From Pseudomonadota bacterium (GTDB lineage Bacteria > Pseudomonadota > Gammaproteobacteria > Halothiobacillales > Halothiobacillaceae): a stretch of DNA of 10,289 bases. Shown here piece after piece: positions 240 through 10,289 of the stretch; position 1 is the first letter of the stretch; each line of letters starts with the position of its first letter. The position numbers and the translations under genes were made by a program. The stretch is taken from positions 1-10,289 of the forward strand of contig JAJYPA010000272.1 in NCBI GenBank assembly GCA_021795795.1, in the 5' to 3' direction. A model generated the notes under the pieces. It saw only the letters and a program-made list of their open reading frames with translations. It had not been told where the DNA came from and searched no databases.

Positions 240-268
240 TTGACATCCCTTTTTTGAAGGTCTATATT
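240..268 (+). promoter_or_regulatory. host-type sigma-70 promoter for the sigma-like gene
   Basis: A perfect -35 TTGACA (240-245) is followed by an ideal 17-bp spacer and TATATT (263-268, five of six bases). Transcription would start near 275 and give a leader of about 110 nt before the AUG at 385. This layout differs from the repeated TGCTATA-type elements in front of the other units, which suggests this gene is read by the host housekeeping polymerase. Confidence 0.65.
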
Positions 269-384: not shown

Positions 385-1968
385 ATGGCATTTATCAAAC
401 TTAGCAGCATTTGTGATGATCCGGAAGATGAGTTGTTTCATGACACCGCAGAGCAGGTCGCAGCGCGAACTGTCTGGGATCTCGCCACCAAAGAGCTGGA
501 TGGGCTTTCTATGGCCGTTGGACTCGTCTGGCTCCACGAATTTCAGCACCCTGAGATTTGCTCCTTCCTGAGTCTCCTCTCTCCAGAAGAGGCTGAGACC
601 TGGGAGTACAATGTGCGCAATGATTTCCTGATGGCAGAGGCAGGCATCACTCAAGACGACTATTTTGAAGATGACCCATTCTGGGAGGACATGCAGGAGC
701 AGACCTGGGCAGCCGAAGAATCTATCAAGGTTACCGCTGCCGCAGCCTATGCTGTAAATCATGTCGCAACCCTCGGCCCGCGCGCCTCCAACCCCAGCCC
801 TACCCCCCGCCGTCAGACCGGCGGCTCCGATTCTGAAGACCCCGCCTCAGCCGATCACGATTCGCACGTCCAGACCTACCTGCAGTATATAAATGTAAAG
901 TACCACCGCCTCATCTGTTGGACTTCCGCCCTGGAAGTCGTCACCGCCATCTGCCCGGCGGCGAAACCCCACATCAAGAAGCACACCTACCAGATCGGCA
1001 ACCGTTGTCTGGAGTTGGCTGATTATCCAGATGATCTCACCCCTGATTACACTTTTCGCACGCTGAAATGTGCGGCATTGCATCTGTTTAATCCAGATTT
1101 CCGCAACAAATCAGAGATGGAGATGTACTGCGCATTGTTGCATTACCAGGTGCGCCACAAGAGCACCGTTGCCATGGCACGGCTGGCAACCATGTTTTGT
1201 CCATTTAATCGTGAAAGTAGGGCGATGGATAAAATTTTATCTGACATGCTCAATAATCTTGCCCACAACCTGATCAGGTCGTGGCGAAACCACGGTGACC
1301 TGGAGGAGGTGAAAGATTATCATTCTGAGGCTGTGGCGTCCGGTTTGAGACGCTTGAAGGCCTTTGATCTGTCTACTTATCGTGAATCATCGTTGCAGTC
1401 CTATCTTATCCGGTTCATGCAGCAGGGGATTAATGTGTTTAGGGATGTCATTGCCAAGACCAGCAGTCCCGGCCTTACCGCCCGCATGGCTACCGAGAAT
1501 AGGGCTGCGGCCAGCGCAGTTTTGGATGCCGCAAAGTCTCATCTGGCGCTCCTGGATGAGGATGCACCTGAGTATTTTTCCGCTCTCCGGGATGTTGCAC
1601 TCGCCCACCAGAGCTTGGCTGAGTGCAACCGTGGTCACAGCATTCCTGAGTCGTATTTGGCGTCTAATGCTAATGAAGAAGGGGGTGACATCATTTCTTC
1701 ACACCCTGGGGATATCAACCTTGCTACTGACTCCAACGCTCTTCATAGTCAGACCGTTGCTACAGTAGAGTATCTGCTGAGTGCCATTGGGGACAGCCTG
1801 ATGCGCGAGGTCTACATCAGCAAGCATGTGTATGAAATGAAAACCGGTGAAATTTCCAAACTTCATGGTATTACCCAGGATAAGGTGCGCAAATATCTCA
1901 GCAATGCGCAGGCAATCCTGTCGCATGCCGCGGCGGTTCGCAATATCCGTGGGGAGGACTACTACTAA
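385..1968 (+). CDS. divergent sigma-70-like regulatory protein (527 aa)
   Basis: I do not recognise a named family. Residues about 283-357 follow the pattern of sigma-70 region 2: an N-L-x-x-N-L-I-like helix, then EAVASGLRRLKAFDLSTYRE, then a QSYLIRFMQQGINVFRDVI-like helix, compared with the usual 'GLlrAvdkFDp..g.rFstYa.wwIrqaI'. Residues about 460-515 resemble region 4, with a helix-turn-helix around GEISKLHGITQDKVRKYLSN. A Pro/Ser-rich linker (about 131-160) separates an acidic N-terminal domain with many Asp/Glu and Trp residues (10-112). At 527 aa it is closer in size to primary sigma factors than to ECF factors. The start at 385 is chosen because AAGGAG (372-377) sits 7 nt upstream; the in-frame ATG at 379 is too close to it. 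The protein is coupled to the next gene by TAATG. The sigma reading is inference from pattern, not from a database match. Another DNA-binding regulator remains possible. Confidence 0.6.
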   Translation: MAFIKLSSICDDPEDELFHDTAEQVAARTVWDLATKELDGLSMAVGLVWLHEFQHPEICSFLSLLSPEEAETWEYNVRNDFLMAEAGITQDDYFEDDPFWEDMQEQTWAAEESIKVTAAAAYAVNHVATLGPRASNPSPTPRRQTGGSDSEDPASADHDSHVQTYLQYINVKYHRLICWTSALEVVTAICPAAKPHIKKHTYQIGNRCLELADYPDDLTPDYTFRTLKCAALHLFNPDFRNKSEMEMYCALLHYQVRHKSTVAMARLATMFCPFNRESRAMDKILSDMLNNLAHNLIRSWRNHGDLEEVKDYHSEAVASGLRRLKAFDLSTYRESSLQSYLIRFMQQGINVFRDVIAKTSSPGLTARMATENRAAASAVLDAAKSHLALLDEDAPEYFSALRDVALAHQSLAECNRGHSIPESYLASNANEEGGDIISSHPGDINLATDSNALHSQTVATVEYLLSAIGDSLMREVYISKHVYEMKTGEISKLHGITQDKVRKYLSNAQAILSHAAAVRNIRGEDYY

Positions 1969-2345
1969 TGCGCGCTGTAGATATCAATCTCACCCCCGCC
2001 CAGGCCTGGCAAGCCTGGCAGGCCATCCTTGGTCATCTCTACTCCCGCGGATATGCACAGGAGCAGGTGGCTGAATGGACAGGCATGGAGGCCAACCACG
2101 CCCTTATCCGGCATTACCAGAACCCTGTCTATTTGCAGCCCCCGTCCAGAGCGTGGCGTCACTGTAAAATTCCCCCATGGCTTCCTGGCGCCTGTAATCA
2201 GCGGGTTACCGCCGCACTGGAATCCTTGCTTGATCTCCCTCCGCCTCTTGAGCATGTGTCTGTAACTTCAAAGATGGTGCTATATAACATCGTAAGAAGC
2301 AGAGATCACCCCGATATTGAACAGGAGAGGGAAGATGAATACTGA
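1968..2345 (+). CDS. 125-aa helix-turn-helix-like protein coupled to the sigma-like gene
   Basis: The ATG (1968-1970) overlaps the upstream stop in TAATG, and GGGGAGGA (1951-1958) lies 9 nt upstream, so translation is probably coupled to the sigma-like gene. Residues about 22-50 (YSRGYAQEQVAEWTGMEA followed by LIRHYQNP) fit a helix-turn-helix: a 'G-x-x-x-E-x-V-A-E-x-T-G' turn followed by a second helix. The remainder is Trp/Pro-rich in the middle and acidic at the C-terminus. The last 11 nt overlap the next gene. A TGCTATA-type promoter element for that downstream gene lies inside its 3' end (2258-2288). No family is recognised. The arrangement would suit a co-regulator or anti-sigma partner, which is inference. 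Confidence 0.6.
   Translation: MRAVDINLTPAQAWQAWQAILGHLYSRGYAQEQVAEWTGMEANHALIRHYQNPVYLQPPSRAWRHCKIPPWLPGACNQRVTAALESLLDLPPPLEHVSVTSKMVLYNIVRSRDHPDIEQEREDEY
2258..2289 (+). promoter_or_regulatory. element-type promoter, site A (before the 88-aa gene)
   Basis: GTCTGT (2258-2263) is followed 17 bp later by TATATA (2281-2286), preceded by the extended -10 context GGTGC. It lies inside the 3' end of the 125-aa gene and 54 bp before the ATG at 2335. It matches site D (6871-6901) at 23 of 31 aligned positions, including a shared TTCAAA in the spacer. Confidence 0.55.
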
Positions 2346-2601
2346 CGCAATCAATCCAGCGGATGCGGCCGCCCGCGTAGGTGCTTTGGCTGGTAGGGCC
2401 AGCGCAGCCGATTTTGTCACCATGGCTACCCGGTTGGCGGAAGCGACCAGCGGCACCCCTGCATCTGCAGTGTACCGTGCTCTGGCCGAGCAAGTGCCAT
2501 ATCAGCACGGAGACCTGCTCTGGTATGAGACACCGGAAGGTTTTGAGATAGCCAAACGTATGGTTCTTGGTGACCACCATGACGATGGCCCACTCCACTA
2601 A
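2335..2601 (+). CDS. hypothetical protein (88 aa)
   Basis: The start at 2335 is chosen because AGGAG (2323-2327) lies 7 nt upstream; an in-frame TTG at 2317 has no ribosome-binding site. The protein is Ala-rich in its first half (about residues 9-40: PADAAARVGALAGRASAADF, then MATRLAEA) and probably helical. Its second half holds a LLWYETPEGFEIAKRMVLGD-like segment and a His/Asp-rich tail. There is no signal peptide or membrane segment. It overlaps the upstream 125-aa gene by 11 nt but has its own promoter-like element (site A). A 95-nt gap carrying another such element separates it from topB. Function unknown. Confidence 0.7.
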   Translation: MNTDAINPADAAARVGALAGRASAADFVTMATRLAEATSGTPASAVYRALAEQVPYQHGDLLWYETPEGFEIAKRMVLGDHHDDGPLH

Positions 2602-2632
2602 CTTCGACAATGGTGGCCTCACCACGCTCTCC

Positions 2633-2661
2633 ATCTACAAATGGATATCCGGTGCTATAAG
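2633..2661 (+). promoter_or_regulatory. element-type promoter, site B (before topB)
   Basis: GGTGCTATAAG (2651-2661) is an extended -10 (TG-C-TATAAG) 41 bp before the topB ATG. At the expected -35 distance there is ATCTAC (2633-2638), a weak match to the GTCTGW box of sites A, D and F. A perfect small palindrome, GTCTG-GTAT-CAGAC (2661-2674), covers the likely start of transcription and could be an operator or a 5' hairpin. Confidence 0.5.
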
Positions 2662-2696
2662 TCTGGTATCAGACAAAGCGGCTTAAGGAAAACAGG

Positions 2697-4685
2697 ATGA
2701 AACTGATTATCGCGGAAAAACCGAGTCTGGCTAAAGCCATCCGGGATGTGGTGGGCAAGGAATACACGGTTACTAACGCATTTGGGCACATTCTGGAGCA
2801 GGCAGAGCCGGATGAGTACACACCGGCGGACGTGCCGGTCAATCCGAAGACCGGCAAAAAGCGCTGGCGTCTTGAAGATTTGCCTATTTTTCCAGACAAG
2901 TGGATCAAGCATCCCAAGCCGGACGCAAAAGAACAGTTGATGAAAATCAAGGGAATGCTCAAAGAGGCCGCCTTGGTGGTGAATGCCGGCGACCCGGATC
3001 GGGAGGGCCAACTTCTGATCGACGAGATTCTGGAATACTGTGGTTATCGTGGCCCCGTCCAGCGTGTCTGGCTGGCCTCGCTGGATGAGACCAGCGTCAG
3101 GAAAGCCTTTGCCAATCTGCGCGATAATCGCGAATACCGTGCGCTGAGCCAGGCCGCCGAGGCCCGTTCCCAGGCGGACTGGGTGGTCGGCATGAATCTG
3201 ACCAGAGCATGGACCATACGGAATAATGGCCTATTGTCCGTTGGCCGTGTGCAGACTCCAACTTTGGCTCTGGTGGTTCGCAGGGATCTGGAGATCGAGC
3301 AGTTCAAACCCCGAGACTTCTTTGAAGTCATCGCCCATTGCCGCCACCAGAACGGCGACTTCCTGGCGAAGTGGAGACCACCTGTAAATGACGGTCCAGG
3401 ATTCGATGAGGAAGGTCGCCTGGTGGATCGTAAACTGGCGGATTCCATCGCCGCCAAGGCGGCAGGGCAGGGTAAAATCTCTCGTTATGAGGCCAAAGAT
3501 TCCAGACAGTCCGCCCCCTTGCCGTTCAGCCTCTCCGCACTCCAGAAAGCCGCCAGCGCCAAGTTTGGCATGTCGGCCAACATGGTGCTTGAGACGGCCC
3601 AGAGTCTCTATGAAAAGAAAATCACCAGCTACCCGCGATCTGATGCCCGGTATCTCCCTGAAGAGCAGCATGGCGATGCCGGACGTATCCTTTCTCAGTT
3701 GCCCATCCCCGACCCATTGAAAGGAAAGGTATCGGCCAATCGTAAACACCCCGCCTGGAACACCGGCAAGGTGACGGCGCACCACGCCATCATCCCGACG
3801 GGTGACCGGGCTGCCGGTTTGTCCGATGCCGAACAGAAAATCTATGATTTGATCTGGAAGTCCTATGTTGCGATGTTCTTGCCAGACTATCTTTATAAGG
3901 CTATTGGTGTGACGGTGAGTCTTGGCGGCGAGCAATGGACCGCCTCCGGTCGTCTGGATCTGGACATGGGATGGAAGGCACTGTATGGCACATCCGTTGC
4001 CGACGATGATGAGGACGGCGATGGTGAGGGAAAAGCCAAGCTCCCCTCCATGACCACAGGCGACGCCATCACCGGACAAAAAGGCGAGGTTCAGGCCAAG
4101 CAGACGAAGCCGCCCGTGCGTTTTACCGACGGCACCATGATCGAGGCGATGAGCAACATCCACAAGTTCGTAACGGACCACACCGCCAAGGCCAAGCTGA
4201 AAGAGACATCGGGCATCGGTACCGAGGCCACACGGGCGAATGTCCTGGAAACTTTGGTCAAACGCGGGTTTGTGGAGCGCAAGGGCAAGCAGATCATCAG
4301 CACCGCTACGGGGCGGTCTCTGGTGAAAGCCCTGCCCGTGGACCTCACCGATCCGGTGACGACCGCCCGCTGGGAGGATCACCTTTCATCCATTGCGGAC
4401 GGCAAACTGGACCCCGATAAATTCATGGGGGCCATCCAGCAGATGGTGCGGGAGCAGTTGGGGAAGGTGACAGCGGGGGTGAGCGTGGCTGGCGGTAAAT
4501 CTGGTGGAGGCTCTGGCGGTGCGAAAAAGGCTGGCCCACAATGTCCAGAATGCAAAACGGCTACTATTATTCTCACAACCAAAACCGGCAGGCCTTTTGT
4601 GAAGTGTGAGAAGTGCGGGTCCGGCTGGTGGCCGGACCGGAATGATCCCAAGAAACTGGGGTCGAAGTGGGAAGCGAGGAAGTGA
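2697..4685 (+). CDS. topB: DNA topoisomerase III (type IA)
   Basis: This enzyme relaxes and decatenates DNA by cutting one strand through a phosphotyrosine link. On conjugative elements such as RP4 (TraE) related proteins accompany DNA transfer. The Toprim domain begins at residue 1 (MKLIIAEKPSLAKAI, Glu7) and carries the metal-binding DxDxE as D99-P-D101-R-E103. The active-site tyrosine is Y312 in TSYPRSD. The conserved AHHAIIPT (361-368) and SGIGTEATRA (505-514) segments are present. After a Gly/Ser-rich linker (about 597-610) the C-terminus has one zinc ribbon (C616/C619 and C637/C640). At 662 aa it is full length for the family. AAGGA (2685-2689) lies 7 nt before the ATG. The low-complexity acidic stretch DDDEDGDGEG (437-446) looks like an insertion. 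Confidence 0.96.
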   Translation: MKLIIAEKPSLAKAIRDVVGKEYTVTNAFGHILEQAEPDEYTPADVPVNPKTGKKRWRLEDLPIFPDKWIKHPKPDAKEQLMKIKGMLKEAALVVNAGDPDREGQLLIDEILEYCGYRGPVQRVWLASLDETSVRKAFANLRDNREYRALSQAAEARSQADWVVGMNLTRAWTIRNNGLLSVGRVQTPTLALVVRRDLEIEQFKPRDFFEVIAHCRHQNGDFLAKWRPPVNDGPGFDEEGRLVDRKLADSIAAKAAGQGKISRYEAKDSRQSAPLPFSLSALQKAASAKFGMSANMVLETAQSLYEKKITSYPRSDARYLPEEQHGDAGRILSQLPIPDPLKGKVSANRKHPAWNTGKVTAHHAIIPTGDRAAGLSDAEQKIYDLIWKSYVAMFLPDYLYKAIGVTVSLGGEQWTASGRLDLDMGWKALYGTSVADDDEDGDGEGKAKLPSMTTGDAITGQKGEVQAKQTKPPVRFTDGTMIEAMSNIHKFVTDHTAKAKLKETSGIGTEATRANVLETLVKRGFVERKGKQIISTATGRSLVKALPVDLTDPVTTARWEDHLSSIADGKLDPDKFMGAIQQMVREQLGKVTAGVSVAGGKSGGGSGGAKKAGPQCPECKTATIILTTKTGRPFVKCEKCGSGWWPDRNDPKKLGSKWEARK

Positions 4686-4724
4686 CTGCGGGTGTGGTTT
4701 CCATGTTTGAGCAGGAGATTTGAT

Positions 4725-4973
4725 ATGAATGACTTGATGCGGCTGCTGAGTGATTTGAAATTGTCCCCCGTACCTGGCACGGAGGTTCCCCGTGGTCCAG
4801 TGCCCCCCGCCCCGCCGGATATGGGGTATGACCCGGACTCTTATGAACCGTGGGATCCGGAAACCGATGAGGAAGACGACCCCGCTTGCGTGGACGAAGA
4901 TGGTGTCTGCATTGCCGACCCGCGCCGTCTGCAAGACCCGGACGCGGAGGGCCGTAAGCATGTCATCCACTAA
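4725..4973 (+). CDS. acidic proline-rich hypothetical protein (82 aa)
   Basis: The start at 4725 follows AGGAG (4713-4717) with a 7-nt spacer; an upstream in-frame ATG at 4692 lacks a comparable site. The protein has a short helical N-terminus (MNDLMRLLSDLK), then a Pro-rich stretch (15-32), then a strongly acidic segment (about 36-62, DPETDEEDDPACVDEDG) with two cysteines five residues apart. No membrane segment or signal peptide is visible. It begins 39 nt after topB, without a promoter of the TGCTATA type, and probably belongs to the topB transcript. It overlaps the next gene by 14 nt. Family not recognised. Confidence 0.7.
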   Translation: MNDLMRLLSDLKLSPVPGTEVPRGPVPPAPPDMGYDPDSYEPWDPETDEEDDPACVDEDGVCIADPRRLQDPDAEGRKHVIH

Positions 4974-5364
4974 TGTTGATATTGACGATATCGAAGCCTG
5001 GGCGATGGATGAGGGGCAGGGTGCGGGGAAGTCCCGGCAGCGCCGCCTGAATCATCTGATTGCCAGTATTGAATATGACAGGAAGATGCCCCAACCGAAC
5101 GCCTTGCCTGTCAATTCTGGTGAACGGCGGGTTGCCGAGGCCCGCCAGCGCCGGTTGCTGGTCAAGGCTGTGGCTCAAGGGTACCAGCCACCGGTGAAGG
5201 AAATCGCCACGGAAATAGGAAAAGAGGCGGCCAGCCATGCGCTGGGCGTCCCGCTGGACATGGACCCCGGAGAGATGATGAAGGACATTACTTCCCGCGA
5301 GCAATCGGCCAAGAAGCGCGGCATCGGGAGTTCAGGGCTGGGATTCGGGTTTTCTCCGGGCTAG
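4960..5364 (+). CDS. hydrophilic hypothetical protein (134 aa)
   Basis: The ATG at 4960 is preceded by GGAGG (4946-4950) at 9 nt and overlaps the end of the acidic 82-aa gene by 14 nt, suggesting coupled translation. The frame stays open further upstream to 4792, but that extension would lie over the 82-aa gene. Two similar basic helices occur, around residues 24-38 (SRQRRLNHLIASIE) and 59-74 (AEARQRRLLVKAVAQG). The C-terminus is basic and then Gly/Phe-rich (GIGSSGLGFGFSPG). It is soluble, with no signal peptide. Family not recognised; the placement between topB and trbB suggests a role in transfer or DNA processing. Confidence 0.7.
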   Translation: MSSTNVDIDDIEAWAMDEGQGAGKSRQRRLNHLIASIEYDRKMPQPNALPVNSGERRVAEARQRRLLVKAVAQGYQPPVKEIATEIGKEAASHALGVPLDMDPGEMMKDITSREQSAKKRGIGSSGLGFGFSPG

Positions 5365-5395
5365 CACCCGGCACGGGTTCCTGAGAACGGTGCTA
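5356..5395. repeat. nested inverted repeats upstream of trbB
   Basis: Several short palindromes overlap here: CCGGG/CCCGG (5356-5360, 5367-5371), ACCCG/CGGGT with a 3-nt loop (5366-5370, 5374-5378), GTTC-CTGA-GAAC (5377-5388), and TAGCACC (5362-5368) inverted against GGTGCTA (5389-5395). The last pair places an inverted copy of the -10 motif 27 bp upstream. There is no following T-run, so an operator or a weak structured terminator for the upstream unit are both possible. Confidence 0.4.
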
Positions 5396-5400
5396 TAGAG
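5389..5400 (+). promoter_or_regulatory. element-type promoter, site C (before trbB)
   Basis: GGTGCTATAGAG is an extended -10 (TG-C-TATAGA at 5394-5399), 36 bp before the trbB ATG. The expected -35 position holds GCACGG (5371-5376), which does not match the GTCTGW box. The element overlaps the right arms of the palindromes just upstream. Confidence 0.5.
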
Positions 5401-5429
5401 AAGTTATGGACATGAAGGAGGATATGTAA

Positions 5430-6431
5430 ATGGCACTCGATCCAAAGATTGAAGCACACCAACGGCTGGTGGAGCAGTTACGCCGATCGTTTGGGCAAAC
5501 CATTATGGCGGCCTTCGAGGATGAAAAGGTCGTCGAGATCATGGCGAATCCGGACGGGAAGCTGCTGGTCGAGCGACACGGGCGGGGCATCGTACAGGAG
5601 GGCATGATCGCCCCGCAGCAGGTGCAGAACATCATCGGTCTGGTGGCGGCGTGGCGGGGGACGATCAGTAATGCGGAAAAACCGATCTGTGAAGGGTCGT
5701 TGCCGCGTGAGTTTGGTGGGGCGCGGTTTGAGGGGGTTCTGCCGCCACTATCGAAAGGTCCGTTATTTGCAATACGGTTACCAGCCCGCAGCATTTACAC
5801 GCTGACCAATTATGTGGAAGCAGGAATACTGTCAAACGAGCATGAAAAAGCAATAGAAGTCGTTGTAGAAGAAAAGAAGCTGGACAAGTTTGGTACACTA
5901 CGAAGGGCAATAGAATTACGCAAAAACATCCTGGTGAGCGGTGGCACCGGCAGCGGTAAAACAACACTACTTAACGCTATTTTGCAGTATATATCGGAAA
6001 TATCGGACCTGGACCAGCGCGTGGTAACTATCGAGGATACCGGCGAACTGCAGTGCACCGCGCCCAATTTTGTGGACCTGTTGACCGACGATACGGCGAA
6101 TGTGGACATGACTCGTTTGTTGAAAGCCACTATGCGATTACGGCCTGACCGTATTGTGGTCGGTGAGGTGCGCGACGGCTCGGCGCTGGCTCTATTGAAG
6201 GCGTGGAACACGGGGCACCCGGGGGGTGCCGCCACCGTTCATGCCAACAACCCGCAGGCGGCCTTGCTGAGACTGGATCAACTTTGTCAGGAGGCCGGTG
6301 TGCCCTCACAAAGTGAGTTGATCGCCGAGGCGGTGGATATCGTGATCCAGATACAGAAAGATAAAAGCCACCCCGCCGGACGCCGCATAACGAGCATGTG
6401 GGATGTAAAGAGAAGTGAGGAGATAGTATGA
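5430..6431 (+). CDS. trbB: TrbB, conjugal transfer ATPase (VirB11-type)
   Basis: TrbB is the hexameric cytoplasmic ATPase at the base of the Trb mating-pore apparatus, which powers pilus assembly and substrate transfer. The N-terminal domain (about 1-150) is followed by a RecA-like domain with Walker A GGTGSGKTT (171-179), Asp box VVTIEDTGELQ (198-208), Walker B region MRLRPDRIVVGEVRDG (235-250) and His box TGHPGGAATVHANNP (261-275). The length of 333 aa is normal. AAGGAGG (5415-5421) lies 8 nt before the ATG. The last 4 nt overlap the next gene (ATGA). Codons from about 5760 to 6000 are noticeably AT-rich (38-45% GC against about 60% before), suggesting a mosaic segment. Confidence 0.96.
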   Translation: MALDPKIEAHQRLVEQLRRSFGQTIMAAFEDEKVVEIMANPDGKLLVERHGRGIVQEGMIAPQQVQNIIGLVAAWRGTISNAEKPICEGSLPREFGGARFEGVLPPLSKGPLFAIRLPARSIYTLTNYVEAGILSNEHEKAIEVVVEEKKLDKFGTLRRAIELRKNILVSGGTGSGKTTLLNAILQYISEISDLDQRVVTIEDTGELQCTAPNFVDLLTDDTANVDMTRLLKATMRLRPDRIVVGEVRDGSALALLKAWNTGHPGGAATVHANNPQAALLRLDQLCQEAGVPSQSELIAEAVDIVIQIQKDKSHPAGRRITSMWDVKRSEEIV

Positions 6432-6664
6432 GCGCAGAAGAGAAGGATCCCTTCGCCAACATCAGCGACGAGGATAGGGCAACGATGGATCAGTGCCATC
6501 GGCTGCACGCAAATGCCAACCTGCGTATTCAGTTGGTGGCGATGTTGCTGCTCGTCACCCCCATGCTGGTGCGCCATTTTTACCCTGAGCCGTGGGCCGT
6601 CTGGGCGACGGCGGCGGCACTCTGCTGGCCTGTTGGGTTGTTTGTAGCGGGGATGTGGGTGTGA
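6428..6664 (+). CDS. small two-helix membrane protein (78 aa)
   Basis: ATGA overlap with trbB and a GAGGAG site just upstream (6417-6422) support this gene as part of the trbB operon. The N-terminus is soluble and acidic (1-32). Two likely membrane helices follow, about residues 33-49 (LRIQLVAMLLLVTPMLV) and 57-77 (AVWATAAALCWPVGLFVAGMW), separated by a short HFYPEP turn. The size and layout do not match TrbC (no signal peptide or pilin motif), and no family is recognised. An inner-membrane accessory role in the transfer apparatus is inferred from position only. Confidence 0.7.
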   Translation: MSAEEKDPFANISDEDRATMDQCHRLHANANLRIQLVAMLLLVTPMLVRHFYPEPWAVWATAAALCWPVGLFVAGMWV

Positions 6665-6876
6665 GCCAGCACGACGCCTCGCGTATAAACCGCATCAACC
6701 GGCATCTCAAAATGACGGGCACCACCCACTGGCTTCTTGAGAGCGATGACCTGATTCTGGTGCGATATTTGTCGCCCGTGGCCTGTCCTATATGTGGCAT
6801 GGCGGAAACGCTGGCGGAATTTCTGACGGTTGGAGAAGCATTGCGGTTTTTGCAGGAGCGCGAAATTCTTGTCTGA
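6661..6876 (+). CDS. small CPxC-containing protein (71 aa)
   Basis: I place the start at GTG 6661, which overlaps the preceding stop in GTGA, the same 4-nt arrangement as trbB and its downstream gene. The alternative upstream ATG (6592) would lie deep inside the membrane-protein gene. The N-terminus is basic (RINRINRHLKM). The middle carries ACPICGM (C42, C45), a single CxxC that could bind metal or be redox active but lacks a second cysteine pair. The C-terminus is helical (LTVGEALRFLQEREILV). Function unknown. A TGCTATA-type element begins 13 bp after its stop, so the trbB unit appears to end here. Confidence 0.65.
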   Translation: MSQHDASRINRINRHLKMTGTTHWLLESDDLILVRYLSPVACPICGMAETLAEFLTVGEALRFLQEREILV

Positions 6877-6901
6877 TTTTTCAAAACAGGTGCTATATAC
6901 C
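6871..6901 (+). promoter_or_regulatory. element-type promoter, site D
   Basis: GTCTGA (6871-6876) is followed 17 bp later by TATATA (6894-6899) within GGTGCTATATA. It matches site A over 31 bp at 23 positions (GTCTG, TTCAAA and GGTGCTATATA are all shared at the same offsets). The upstream box overlaps the last codons of the 71-aa gene. The first possible start downstream is a 19-codon frame at 6922; the first convincing gene starts at 7012. Confidence 0.55.
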
Positions 6902-6952
6902 CCTTTGTGCGGTGGCTGGCTATGAAAATTTCAAGCGGTCAATCATCTCCCG

Positions 6953-6981
6953 GTCTGTTTTCTGTGGATGACGCTATATAG
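6953..6981 (+). promoter_or_regulatory. element-type promoter, site F (variant, before the 59-aa gene)
   Basis: GTCTGT (6953-6958) is followed after 16 bp by TATATA (6975-6980) in the context GATGACGCTATATAG, so the GC before TATA is kept but the TG of the extended -10 is replaced by CG. It is 37 bp before the ATG at 7012 and in tandem with site D, 81 bp upstream. Confidence 0.4.
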
Positions 6982-7011
6982 GGTATGTAACCACTTTGAG
7001 GAGGGTATGCG

Positions 7012-7191
7012 ATGACTGGTCAGACTGAAAACTTTAACAACGACGATGCAGCCTATATTTCTTTTGCGATTCGGTTTGATCCTGTTGCCGAAGATTGTTA
7101 TGACGATAATGAGGAAGATCACAACCAGTTTCTTTCTTTTTTCGACCGCGCACCGGTCGGGGACGAGATTGACCAGGTGGTGCTGCAATAA
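7012..7191 (+). CDS. small acidic protein (59 aa), AT-rich gene
   Basis: The ATG at 7012 has a strong ribosome-binding site, GAGGAGGG (6998-7005), 6 nt upstream. The 59-residue product is very acidic (DPVAEDCYDDNEEDHNQF in the middle), with aromatic residues and one cysteine, and no basic or membrane stretch. The gene is about 40% GC, clearly lower than its neighbours. It sits alone between tandem promoter-like elements (sites D and F) and another one (site E) for trbC, so it may be its own transcription unit. Family not recognised. A highly acidic small protein could be a DNA mimic, anti-restriction or regulatory factor, but nothing in the sequence proves it. Confidence 0.6.
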   Translation: MTGQTENFNNDDAAYISFAIRFDPVAEDCYDDNEEDHNQFLSFFDRAPVGDEIDQVVLQ

Positions 7192-7201
7192 CGGTTGTGA
7201 T

Positions 7202-7229
7202 TGTGGCCGCCTCGCACAGTGCGGTCACA
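7202..7229 (+). repeat. 9-bp inverted repeat overlapping the trbC promoter
   Basis: TGTGGCCGC (7202-7210) pairs with GCGGTCACA (7221-7229) over a 10-nt loop, with one G-U wobble in RNA. It begins 11 nt after the stop of the 59-aa gene, as a terminator might, but only mixed bases follow, not a T-run. Its right arm contains the -35 position of site E (GTCACA 7224-7229), so it could equally be an operator. Confidence 0.45.
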
Positions 7230-7252
7230 TTGTCGTAAAATGATGCTATAAG
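7224..7252 (+). promoter_or_regulatory. element-type promoter, site E (before trbC)
   Basis: GATGCTATAAG (7242-7252) is an extended -10 with TATAAG at 7247-7252, 54 bp before the trbC start. At the same 17-bp spacing seen in sites A and D there is GTCACA (7224-7229), sharing the first three bases of the GTCTGW box. The -35 position is within the right arm of a 9-bp inverted repeat. Confidence 0.5.
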
Positions 7253-7300: not shown

Positions 7301-7660
7301 ATGAAGACGAAGTTGAAGCAGTTCAAGAAGGTTCTGGTGGGCGCTGGACTCTCCGTCCTGGGCACGGTTCCGGCGCTGGCAAGTAGCGGTGGCGGAAATA
7401 TGCCGTGGGATACCCCTCTGACCAATATCCAGCAGGACCTGAGCGGCACCGTGGCGCACGTGTTTATCATAGTTGCCATCGTTGCCACAGGCCTCATGTG
7501 GGCTTTTGGGGAACATGGCTCCAGTATGCGCAAGGTGATGGGCATTGCGGCGGGTGGCAGTATGGCGCTTGGGGGTGTGTCCGTGGTCAGCGATCTGACC
7601 GGCAGTTCTGGTGCGGTGATCGGCATGGCGCATCCCTTTCTCCACCTGTTGGGGGTGTAA
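7301..7660 (+). CDS. trbC: TrbC, conjugative pilin (VirB2-like)
   Basis: TrbC is the pilus subunit precursor of the Trb system, exported to the inner membrane and processed. Here a basic N-terminus (MKTKLKQFKK) and hydrophobic core lead to a likely signal-peptidase site after PALA (about residue 27). Two membrane helices follow, about 51-70 (VAHVFIIVAIVATGLMWAFG) and 80-97 (GIAAGGSMALGGVSVV), as in TrbC/VirB2 proteins. The length is 119 aa. I choose the ATG at 7301 because GGAGG (7288-7292) is 8 nt upstream; the in-frame ATG at 7286 overlaps that site. It is 3 nt from trbD. Confidence 0.9.
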   Translation: MKTKLKQFKKVLVGAGLSVLGTVPALASSGGGNMPWDTPLTNIQQDLSGTVAHVFIIVAIVATGLMWAFGEHGSSMRKVMGIAAGGSMALGGVSVVSDLTGSSGAVIGMAHPFLHLLGV

Positions 7661-7663
7661 GTC

Positions 7664-7984
7664 ATGTCCGCCGCAAATGGGGAGATCGTACTCACCCGTC
7701 GTATCCCCATCCACTCTTCTCTGCTTCGTCCGCAGCTTCTGGGCGGAGCAGAGCGGGAGTTGGCTATCGTGAATGCAACATTGGTGGCTGCGCTGATTTT
7801 TGGGGTCGGTGGCGTAATCGGCATCGGTATGGGCTTGGTGTTAGGCACCACCATACATTTCATGCTGACCATAGCCGCAAAGAAAGATGACAAGGGGATG
7901 GCGGTTTATCGTCGCCAGATTCATCAACAGAATTTCTATGCGGCGAGCGCCTGGGTGAGTGCCCGGCAGCAATTGAATCACTAG
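7664..7984 (+). CDS. trbD: TrbD, conjugal transfer protein (VirB3-like)
   Basis: TrbD is a small inner-membrane component that works with the TrbE ATPase in pilus biogenesis. Family features are an N-terminal RRIPIHSSLLRPQLLGGAER segment (12-31, compare the VirB3 'hrSL.rP.l..GgeR' pattern), a glycine-rich hydrophobic region with one or two helices (about 36-71), and a soluble C-terminus. The length of 106 aa is typical. GGGGGTG (7651-7657) lies 6 nt before the ATG and overlaps the end of trbC. The next gene downstream is not trbE, which is unusual for this family. Confidence 0.9.
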   Translation: MSAANGEIVLTRRIPIHSSLLRPQLLGGAERELAIVNATLVAALIFGVGGVIGIGMGLVLGTTIHFMLTIAAKKDDKGMAVYRRQIHQQNFYAASAWVSARQQLNH

Positions 7985-8006
7985 GCTGGGGAAAGAGAGG
8001 CTATAT

Positions 8007-8555
8007 ATGTGGTACGTGCCATTGTATCAAGATGCCGCCAAGCAGACGGCCATTGTACAGGTCATGCCCGCCATCGCGCGGCCACGATTGCCAACAATTG
8101 CCCCAATCTCCCGTGCGCCAACGCGGCACGTCGCTTTCGTGGCTCCTGCTGGTTATGTGGAATGGCCGATGAAGCCGACACCCACACATCACCTCTGGGC
8201 ACCGCCCGCAGGCTATAGATCATGGCAACCGCAACCCGCGAGGTATCAGCGTGTGGCCTCGGCAGAATCTCCGGCACCGACGGTGATTCCCGCGCTGAAT
8301 ACCGTGGTGGCATTACCGGCAGCGTACCGTTATGCCGCCGCAAAAGCCGTGGCGTATGTCACTCAAAAAATCGGTTGGAAGTTCGTGGAGCAGGCAGGCG
8401 CCGTACCTATGGCACTGGCGCAGATCGGTATGCCTTGGGCGCCGAAGACCACTACGGCGTTGTCGCTGCTCAAGAGAATGTGCAACGACGTGCCCGCCAT
8501 CGATATCACCATCAACCCGCAAATGCGCACCATCACCTATGATGCCAAACTCTGA
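8007..8555 (+). CDS. Pro/Ala/Tyr-rich hypothetical protein between trbD and trbE (182 aa)
   Basis: An unrecognised protein inserted between trbD (22-nt gap) and trbE (12-nt gap). AGAGAGG (7994-8000) lies 6 nt before the ATG. The first half is rich in Pro, Ala and Tyr and contains an imperfect repeat 20 residues apart: APAGYVEWP (46-54) and APPAGYRSWQP (65-75). The middle is Ala/Val-rich (about 93-118, VIPALNTVVALPAAYRYAAA), possibly membrane-associated. The C-terminus (120-182) looks globular, with KIGWKFVEQAG and PAIDITINPQMRTITYD. No clear signal peptide. Another forward frame is partly open across this stretch, but this one has the ribosome-binding site, the operon spacing and the longer uninterrupted frame. 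A role in the transfer apparatus is inferred from position only. Confidence 0.7.
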   Translation: MWYVPLYQDAAKQTAIVQVMPAIARPRLPTIAPISRAPTRHVAFVAPAGYVEWPMKPTPTHHLWAPPAGYRSWQPQPARYQRVASAESPAPTVIPALNTVVALPAAYRYAAAKAVAYVTQKIGWKFVEQAGAVPMALAQIGMPWAPKTTTALSLLKRMCNDVPAIDITINPQMRTITYDAKL

Positions 8556-8567
8556 GGAGAACCAAAC

Positions 8568-10289
8568 ATGCTGAATCTTACCGAATATCGTCCCAAGGCC
8601 AAATCCCTGCCAGACCTGCTGAACATCGCCTTTCTGGTGGACGAGCGTGACGTGGGCCGTCATAAAATGGGCATTGCGCTAAACAAAAGCGGTTCTCTGA
8701 TGGCGGGATTCACCTTTGGCGGTCCTGATCTGGAAAGCTCCAGTCCAAATGACTTGAACTATCTGTCGGCGCACCTGAACCATGCCATTGCCCGCTTGGG
8801 CACGGGATGGGCGCTGCACATCGATATGGTGCGCAAGGAGGCTCCGGGCTACATCCCGGAAAAACTCTGCATGTTCCCCGATCCCGTGTCACACACGATC
8901 GACGCCGAACGACGCCTGCAGCACGAAGAGGAGTCCGCGCATTTCGAGAGCCGGACGACCTTTATTTTTAGCTGGGATATCCCTACCTCGGCCGAGTCCG
9001 GGCTGACTAAATTCATCCTCGAAAACGCAGATCGTGAGAGTGAGTCTTTGAAAGAGCATATCAGCCGCTTTGCGACGGATATGGAAACCATCATGAATAT
9101 CGCGGGCGGCTCCGGCGTGGTTGCACCGCTGTCCAGCTCCGATCTGCTGACCCAGATTCACGGTTGTCTGACCGGCGACTATCACCAACTTGGCGTGCCG
9201 AAAATTCCGGCCTATCTGGATGCGGTCATCGGTGCGCACGATGTGGTCAGCGGATTTGAGCCACGCATCCACGATGGCGGGCAGTGGCAGGAGATGCGGG
9301 CGATCAGCATCTCCGGCTGGCCGTCTGAATCCTTTCCGGAAATCCTGGAATCGCTCAACACCCTGCCTGTCGAGCTGCGCTTTTCCGTGCGCTACATATT
9401 CATCGATCCCAATGAGAGCGTCGGTATGCTCAATAAATACCGTCGCAACTGGTTCCAGAAACGGCATGGCCTGGGTACCCAGGTGAGCATGGCGATGGGC
9501 GGCGAGGGCAGCGCGTTTGAGAATACCGACGCGCTCAGTATGACTGCGGACGCGGATTCCGCCATTGCCGAGGCGTCCAGCAATGTCATTCGCTTTGGCT
9601 TCATGAGCGCCAACATCATCCTGCTCTCCCCCGATAAACGGGAAATGGCGAATCGGGTGAAGATGGTCCGCAAGCACCTGGATAATCTGGGCTTTGTCAG
9701 CCGCGTGGAGTCCATCAATGCCTTTGAAGCGTTCATGGGCAGCATCCCCGGCCACTGCTACGAAAACGTCCGCCGCCCGTTGATGAACACCATGAATTTG
9801 ATGGACATCGCGCCGACCACCAGCATCTGGACGGGGGATGAGTTCAGTCCGAACCCGTTCACGGCGGCCATTTATCGCGCACTCAAAGATGACAACGGCG
9901 ACGCACTGTTCTCAAAATCCCAGAAAGCCCCGCCGCTGTTTTACGGGGCGACGACGGGCAACACGCCCTTCCGGTTCAACCACCATGTCGAGGACGTGGG
10001 GCATCTGCTGATTGCGGGTCCTACCGGCGCGGGCAAGAGCGTTTTGCTTTCCCTGATGGCCGCCCAGCAGTTGCGTTACCCGGATGCCAGGGTGTTTTCA
10101 TTCGACAAGGGTTGGTCGATTTTCACCCTGTGTCAGGCGGTCGGTGGCAGTCATTATGACATCGGCAACGACGAAAACCCCATCACGTTTGCCCCGTTGT
10201 CGCGTGTGCATGAATCGGCCTCAGAGCGCCGCTGGGCGGAAGACTGGATTGCCAATCTTTGCATTCTGCAGGGCGTTTCCGTGGACTCC
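8568..10289 (+). CDS. trbE: TrbE, conjugal transfer ATPase (VirB4-type), partial at right edge
   Basis: TrbE/VirB4 is the large inner-membrane-associated ATPase essential for pilus assembly and DNA transfer. The frame is open from the ATG at 8568 to the end of the window (574 codons, no stop), so about two thirds of a family member of roughly 800-850 aa is present. The N-terminal CagE/TrbE/VirB-type domain is followed by Walker A GPTGAGKS (484-491) and the characteristic FSFDKGWS (510-517). The Walker B region and C-terminal part lie beyond the edge. The ribosome-binding site is GAGGAGA just after the previous stop, 7 nt or so from the ATG. It completes the trbC-trbD-182aa-trbE unit read from site E. 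Confidence 0.95.
   Translation, partial: MLNLTEYRPKAKSLPDLLNIAFLVDERDVGRHKMGIALNKSGSLMAGFTFGGPDLESSSPNDLNYLSAHLNHAIARLGTGWALHIDMVRKEAPGYIPEKLCMFPDPVSHTIDAERRLQHEEESAHFESRTTFIFSWDIPTSAESGLTKFILENADRESESLKEHISRFATDMETIMNIAGGSGVVAPLSSSDLLTQIHGCLTGDYHQLGVPKIPAYLDAVIGAHDVVSGFEPRIHDGGQWQEMRAISISGWPSESFPEILESLNTLPVELRFSVRYIFIDPNESVGMLNKYRRNWFQKRHGLGTQVSMAMGGEGSAFENTDALSMTADADSAIAEASSNVIRFGFMSANIILLSPDKREMANRVKMVRKHLDNLGFVSRVESINAFEAFMGSIPGHCYENVRRPLMNTMNLMDIAPTTSIWTGDEFSPNPFTAAIYRALKDDNGDALFSKSQKAPPLFYGATTGNTPFRFNHHVEDVGHLLIAGPTGAGKSVLLSLMAAQQLRYPDARVFSFDKGWSIFTLCQAVGGSHYDIGNDENPITFAPLSRVHESASERRWAEDWIANLCILQGVSVDS

What the first reader, a model, noticed from the sequence alone, without database searches (positions are those of the whole stretch)
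2258..7252. Recurrent promoter-like element (G)RTGCTATAWR in front of most transcription units
The same extended -10, TGCTATA preceded by G and G/A, occurs at 2276, 2651, 5389, 6889 and 7242, with a variant at 6970. The sites lie in intergenic gaps or gene ends, and the TATA hexamer is usually 36-54 bp before a start codon with its own ribosome-binding site. Three of six have GTCTGW 16-17 bp upstream of TATA, and a fourth has GTCACA at the same spacing. I found no comparable TGCTATA inside the long genes. This looks like a dedicated promoter class rather than chance.
Basis: partly seen in the sequence, partly recalled or inferred. Interest (0 to 1): 0.85.

Follow-up and report, generated by a model that had tools for sequence, protein, structure and literature searches.

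The report
Mobile element's own sigma-factor promoters
A DNA-transfer element, probably from an acid-loving bacterium, repeats one unusual start signal in front of its transfer genes and carries, just upstream, a gene for a sigma-type protein that may be the dedicated reader of that signal, so the element may switch its genes on with its own transcription factor.

Summary
TGCTATA occurs five times, 0.47 expected, all on the coding strand, in gaps or at a gene end. With the variant at 6970 there are six sites matching GRYGCTATADR, 0.08 expected (pattern written from the sites). No other position outscores five of the six in a leave-one-out scan. Eight plasmid transfer regions (145,653 bp) hold TGCTATA twice and the full motif never. 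Three of six sites have GTCTGW at -35 spacing.

The first complete gene (385-1968) encodes a divergent sigma-70-family protein: TIGR02937 E = 1.6e-6, hit in 18 of 19 family members. The family profile matches solved RpoS at E = 6e-11; all 60 chains shown are sigma factors. This gene's own promoter looks like ordinary sigma-70, whereas none of the six sites has the T usual for sigma-70 and sigma-S at -7.

Best reading: host sigma-70 expresses an element-encoded sigma that drives topB, trbB, trbC and small genes. This is inferred; no relative's DNA was found. Precedent: plasmid pBS32 SigN. The sigma family is also a striking domain mosaic.

The parts
240..268 (+). sigma-70-type promoter of the sigma gene: TTGACA, 17 nt, TATATT
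   Evidence: 11 of 12 matches; a hit of 11 or more appears in 5% of 300 shuffles of the window
385..1968 (+). element-encoded divergent sigma-70-family protein, 527 aa (start MAFI, Shine-Dalgarno AAGGAG at 372-377); sigma-like part about residues 290-515, the rest a family-specific N-terminal part and linker
   Evidence: TIGR02937 E 1.6e-6, 18 of 19 family members; family profile to RpoS E 6.3e-11; AlphaFold sigma-4 domain
1968..2345 (+). ORF2, 125 aa, overlaps the sigma stop codon by one base; conserved partner gene, possible DNA-binding or anti-sigma protein (unproven)
   Evidence: 12 homologs, 4 of them with the same longest-contig length as a sigma homolog; only weak hits to a helix-turn-helix family, E 0.034, and a phage regulator family, E 0.37
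2258..2286 (+). promoter site 1: GTCTGT-17-TATATA with GGTGC before TATA; in front of orf3 (2335); embedded in the 3' end of ORF2
   Evidence: 30-nt repeat D3 with site 4
2633..2661 (+). promoter site 2: ATCTAC-17-TATAAG; in front of topB
5371..5399 (+). promoter site 3: no clear -35 (GCACGG), TATAGA; in front of trbB
6871..6899 (+). promoter site 4: GTCTGA-17-TATATA; upstream site of a tandem pair before orf10 (or before a 19-aa ORF at 6922)
6953..6980 (+). promoter site 5 (variant GACGCTATATA): GTCTGT-16-TATATA; in front of orf10
7224..7252 (+). promoter site 6: GTCACA-17-TATAAG, GATGC before TATA; in front of trbC
2335..2601 (+). orf3, 88 aa, unknown (putative target gene of site 1)
   Evidence: no Pfam or NCBIfam hit at E up to 5
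2697..4685 (+). topB, DNA topoisomerase III (putative target gene of site 2)
   Evidence: NF005829 E 2e-200, above cut-off
5430..6431 (+). trbB, conjugative transfer ATPase (putative target gene of site 3)
   Evidence: TIGR02782 E 9e-117, above cut-off
7012..7191 (+). orf10, 59 aa, unknown (putative target gene of sites 4 and 5)
   Evidence: no Pfam hit at E up to 5, no NCBIfam hit at 0.001
7301..10289 (+). trbC pilin, trbD, orf13, trbE (cut by the window end): transfer genes downstream of site 6
   Evidence: Pfam TrbC above cut-off; NCBIfam TrbC, TrbD and TrbE models, below their cut-offs

Best explanation
The six GRYGCTATA-D-R sites are extended -10 promoters (TGC-TATAnR, weak GTCTGW -35, about 17-nt spacing) of a dedicated class. 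They are read by RNA polymerase carrying the divergent sigma factor encoded at 385-1968. The sigma gene is itself made from an ordinary host sigma-70 promoter (TTGACA-17-TATATT). When enough sigma accumulates it switches on topB, trbB, trbC and the small genes together as a transfer regulon. ORF2, overlapping the sigma stop codon, is a plausible modulator such as an anti-sigma or co-regulator. Shown: the motif, its placement, and homology of the ORF to sigma-70 family proteins. Inferred: that the sites are promoters, that this sigma reads them, and the role of ORF2.
Against: No transcription data. The window protein alone scores below the curated TIGR02937 cut-off (27.8 versus 42.9 bits) and has no Pfam region-2 hit at E up to 5; a source calls P0019 only a hypothetical protein. 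The region-2 part of both models has low confidence. GTGCTATA is also close to the sigma-S extended -10. Two of six sites have no GTCTG or GTCAC at -35. By word count alone the 7-mer is not significant after correction. ORF2 homologs, 4 of which share longest-contig lengths with sigma homologs of C-terminal types B or C, keep the residues VLY that the site encodes here, which would argue against type-specific recognition if the DNA is kept too. No relative's DNA was available to test co-occurrence of motif and sigma gene.
Confidence: 0.62

Rival explanations
1. The sites are real promoters but are read by a host sigma: housekeeping sigma-70 using an extended -10 (TGnTATAAT) or stationary-phase sigma-S (KCTAYRCTTAA). 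The element's sigma-like protein then serves other promoters or is inactive.
For: TGC-TATA fits the extended -10, and C directly before TATA fits sigma-S; the sigma-S consensus forms KCTAYRCTTAA and CTATACT were seen as a passage in PMC5650638. Weak -35 boxes are usual with extended -10 promoters (recalled).
Against: T at the last position of the -10 hexamer, present in both consensus forms, is missing in 6 of 6 sites (A,G,A,A,A,G), while the sigma gene's own promoter has it. GTCTGW is not a sigma-70 -35 box (TTGACA).
Confidence: 0.25
2. The repeat is an operator for an element-encoded regulator (for example ORF2) that overlaps ordinary promoters, as global regulators co-ordinate several operons on IncP plasmids (recalled).
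For: Several operons share one element; ORF2 is conserved, lies beside the sigma gene here and probably elsewhere, and has weak, non-significant helix-turn-helix similarity.
Against: The motif is asymmetric, has -10/-35 geometry, lies 36-54 bp before start codons at 5 of 6 sites, and the sigma-70 scan reports no + strand promoter beside any site.
Confidence: 0.08
3. Chance recurrence of a short AT-rich word in the AT-rich gaps of the window.
For: TATATA heads the list of over-represented 6-mers (as a palindrome it is counted twice there). TGCTATA is only third among 7-mers, and neither it nor the 8-mer survives correction for all words.
Against: Five exact 7-mers against 0.47; six full motifs against 0.08; 2 exact 7-mers and 0 full motifs in 145,653 bp of control regions; same strand, same place before genes, and the same -35 word at the same spacing in three sites.
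Confidence: 0.03

Closest known systems
SigN (ZpdN) of Bacillus subtilis plasmid pBS32 (PMC6751061, passages seen, part of the abstract among them)
   Same: A plasmid-encoded sigma factor, itself transcribed from housekeeping-sigma promoters, activates a regulon predominantly restricted to the plasmid through its own consensus.
   Different: SigN comes from a Gram-positive host, is LexA-repressed, also self-activates, and its regulon causes cell death; here the putative targets are conjugation genes. No sequence comparison with SigN was run.
Phage-encoded sigma factors (T4 gp55, SPO1 gp28; recalled)
   Same: A mobile element carries its own specificity factor and a dedicated promoter class.
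   Different: Those serve lytic timing; this is a Trb-type conjugative element. P0004, the one family member tried, had no match in 50,697 phage records.
RpoS and other group 2-3 sigma-70 proteins
   Same: Family profile aligns over regions 2 to 4 (best RpoS E 6.3e-11).
   Different: Long family-specific N-terminal part (about 280 aa), divergent region 2, and mosaic C-termini, some apparently without region 4.
IncP-like Tra/Trb transfer regions
   Same: topB, trbB, trbC, trbD and trbE homologs.
   Different: In the three control regions with trb genes, trbB-trbC-trbD-trbE are contiguous; here small genes and promoter sites separate trbB from trbC. None of the eight control regions lists a sigma factor (the gene table is incomplete).
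ICEAfe1 of Acidithiobacillus ferrooxidans (PMC6370655, passages seen)
   Same: Conjugative element in the likely host group, with transfer genes in four operons whose marker genes all rise after mitomycin C.
   Different: The main text uses the word sigma three times, all as a supplier's name; promoters there were predicted with general software.

Membership tests
sigma-70 family | Region 4 (-35 binding helix-turn-helix domain) | tested here: met
sigma-70 family | Region 2 (-10 recognition and core binding) | tested here: inconclusive
   TIGR02937 aligns residues 293-515 including region 2 and Sigma70_r2 is found in 14 of 19 members at 0.1, but not in the window protein alone; model confidence there is low
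sigma-70 family | Family-level profile similarity to solved sigma factors across regions 2-4 | tested here: met
   61 PDB sequences matched at E up to 1, 60 listed, all sigma factors, best 6.3e-11 over profile positions 305-555
sigma-70 family | Binds core RNA polymerase and directs initiation | not testable with these tools
   needs in vitro transcription
host sigma-70 extended -10 promoter | TGnTATAAT with A at position 2 and T at position 6 of the hexamer | tested here: not met
   TG (5 of 6 sites) and TATA (6 of 6) present, T at position 6 in 0 of 6; the scan that demands this T reports none of the six
host sigma-S promoter | KCTAYRCTTAA (CTATACT) | tested here: not met
   GCTATA agrees, but the CT after CTATA is absent in 6 of 6 (TA, AG, GA, TA, TA, AG)
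dedicated promoter class of an element-encoded sigma (SigN-like arrangement) | Consensus shared by promoters of the element and absent elsewhere | tested here: inconclusive
   six sites in the window, none in eight control regions; host genome not held, relatives' DNA not found
dedicated promoter class of an element-encoded sigma (SigN-like arrangement) | Transcription from the sites depends on that sigma | not testable with these tools
   needs RNA mapping with and without the gene

The most novel reading that the evidence does not exclude
The window belongs to a family of conjugative elements whose transfer regulon is driven by swappable sigma factors. The sigma genes of the family are domain mosaics in which an N-terminal module and a promoter-recognising module are exchanged around a conserved linker (P0002/P0019: N-terminal 98%, region 2 22%; P0002/P0003: N-terminal 22%, region 2 99%). 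Sister elements could then reprogramme, or insulate from one another, the promoters that start their transfer genes.
Probability: 0.25. Interest if true: 0.88.

Novelty: new variant of a known kind. Interest (0 to 1): 0.7.

Why it matters
Conjugative elements are usually described as controlling transfer with repressors, activators and host sigma factors (recalled). A conjugative element that brings its own sigma and promoter class would have a transfer programme largely independent of host regulators and directly testable: one gene and one 30-bp promoter. The mosaic family would also give natural chimeras for asking which part of a sigma factor sets promoter choice.

Tried and rejected
Chance was judged unlikely from shuffles, a leave-one-out scan, position and control regions, though word counts alone do not exclude it. 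An RNA element was considered: Rfam found nothing at gathering score. A defence-system reading: no PADLOC hit at 0.01 for four proteins. The 8000 and 8212 GCTATA occurrences were not counted as sites because they lack TG and do not fit the start-codon spacing.

The positional probability printed (all five in the 20-80 bp upstream zone) is not used: site 6891 lies 121 bp from the orf10 start, so 4 of 5 are in that zone.
Full report
WHAT THE WINDOW IS. The window appears to be a complete contig: the protein database lists its sigma-like protein on one contig of exactly 10,289 bases. No whole genome is held for it. It carries part of a Trb-type conjugative element, the recognisable genes all on the + strand: a sigma-like gene (385-1968), ORF2 (1968-2345), orf3, topoisomerase III (2697-4685), two small ORFs, trbB, two small ORFs, orf10, trbC, trbD, orf13 and trbE running off the end. 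Host: homologs of the sigma-like protein are named from an Acidithiobacillus MAG and from A. thiooxidans, so an Acidithiobacillus-like host is likely but not shown.

OBSERVATION. TGCTATA occurs five times, never on the other strand and never inside a long gene; 200 shuffles gave a mean of 0.47 and at most 3. With the variant at 6970 the six sites read GGTGCTATATA, GGTGCTATAAG, GGTGCTATAGA, GGTGCTATATA, GACGCTATATA and GATGCTATAAG. In a leave-one-out scan of both strands nothing outside the set beats 5 of the 6 held-out sites; one overlapping minus-strand position beats the sixth. With all six in the matrix they score 16.1-19.3, the next positions 13.2 and 13.1, then 8.3. GTCTG stands at the -35 spacing in 3 of 6 (chance about 5e-7, but the word was chosen after seeing the sites). 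Sites 1 and 4 share 77% of 30 bases as a longer repeat. Five of six lie 36-54 bp before a start codon with a recognisable ribosome-binding site. Against this, a count over all words puts TGCTATA only third among 7-mers, and neither it nor GTGCTATA survives correction for the number of words; it is the shared place, strand and length of the motif that carry the case (4 of 5 sites in 4.1% of the two strands).

CONTROL. I took eight regions (11.5-22.0 kb each, 145,653 bp together) around trbB or topB of other plasmids, chosen by hand from 70 listed hit rows. They hold TGCTATA twice and the full motif never. Their GC content is 0.51-0.66 against 0.557 in the window, so some are less likely to hold an AT-rich word; both hits are in the four regions at or below 0.58.

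WHY A DEDICATED CLASS. The sigma gene has the best sigma-70-like promoter of the window, TTGACA-17-TATATT, 11 of 12; 5% of 300 shuffles contain one as good. The six sites differ from it: no TTGACA-like box in five of six (GTCACA at site 6, 4 of 6 bases, is the exception), and the last base of the TATAnn hexamer is A, G, A, A, A, G. Both sigma-70 (TATAAT) and sigma-S (KCTAYRCTTAA, passage in PMC5650638) have T there. Hence the simplest picture: host sigma-70 makes the element's sigma, and that sigma reads the GTGCTATA class.

WHAT SPEAKS AGAINST. The sigma-S extended -10 begins with the same GCTATA, and extended -10 promoters tolerate poor -35 boxes (recalled), so a host sigma remains possible (0.25). 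Region 2 of the window protein is divergent and weakly detected. ORF2 homologs keep the residues VLY, which the window encodes with the bases of site 1 (GTG CTA TAT), in 10 of 12. Four of these homologs have the same longest-contig length as sigma homologs with C-terminal types B or C (P0023/P0014, P0024/P0016, P0025/P0012, P0029/P0008), so they probably lie on the same contigs. If the DNA is conserved too, the promoter would be the same with different sigma types, which weakens type-specific recognition; the codons could not be seen.

MOSAIC FAMILY. Segment by segment the 19 sigma proteins fall into different groups. P0002 and P0019 share 98% in the N-terminal part but 22% in region 2 and 13% at the C-terminus; P0002 and P0003 share 22% in the N-terminal part but 99% and 96% in those parts; P0012 and P0017 26% against 96% and 94%; P0007 and P0012 98% against 25% and 13%. 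The junction is a linker (WAAEESIKI...TPRRQTGGSD...CWTSALE) that keeps 52-88% identity in the 15 pairs compared. Three C-terminal types occur; one appears to lack region 4, which I infer from the alignment and the precomputed domains, not from a per-member table. Misassembly at the linker is possible for short contigs, but P0004, P0019, P0002, P0010, P0007 and P0017 have longest contigs of 20-604 kb.

LITERATURE. The closest precedent in their listings is SigN of pBS32 in B. subtilis (PMC6751061, passages seen): a plasmid sigma under housekeeping promoters with a regulon predominantly restricted to the plasmid. Sigma genes are reported on 33 Sulfitobacter plasmids, with effects described as not yet validated (PMC13386836, passages). 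The passages of the ICEAfe1 paper (PMC6370655) describe four T4SS operons and mitomycin C induction and no element sigma. A review of Gram-positive conjugation (PMC6540685, passages) mentions a sigma factor only as host sigma-H acting on phrI. Passages of a study of Acidithiobacillia mobile elements (PMC10561277) name a predicted sigma-70 promoter, and an rpoS-labelled gene in a figure legend, but no element sigma driving transfer. I saw in those listings no report of an element-encoded sigma factor driving conjugation genes; the library holds open-licence papers only and I saw listings and passages, not whole papers.

VERDICT. It is a new variant of a known kind (element-encoded sigma with its own promoters), unusual for its link to conjugation genes and for its mosaic family.

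Noticed in passing
window 385-1968 and homologs P0002-P0019: The sigma family is a domain mosaic: N-terminal and promoter-recognition parts are recombined around a conserved linker, with three C-terminal types, one apparently lacking region 4.
   Followed up: partly
1968-2345: ORF2 overlaps the sigma stop codon by one base and is conserved (74-89% identity in 10 of 12 homologs) while the sigma region-2 and C-terminal parts vary widely; a candidate anti-sigma or co-regulator.
   Followed up: partly
6922-6981: A 19-codon ORF (MKISSGQSSPGLFSVDDAI) lies between promoter sites 4 and 5 and its last codons overlap site 5; it could be a leader peptide or chance.
   Followed up: no
7998-8007: AGGCTATATA directly before the start codon of orf13 resembles the motif without TG; too close to the ATG for the same promoter geometry.
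   Followed up: no
269-384: A leader of over 100 nt separates the sigma-70-type promoter from the sigma start codon; no Rfam family at gathering score.
   Followed up: no
4686-5429 and 6428-7011: Small unknown ORFs sit between topB and trbB and between trbB and trbC, whereas the three fetched plasmid regions with trb genes have trbB to trbE contiguous.
   Followed up: no
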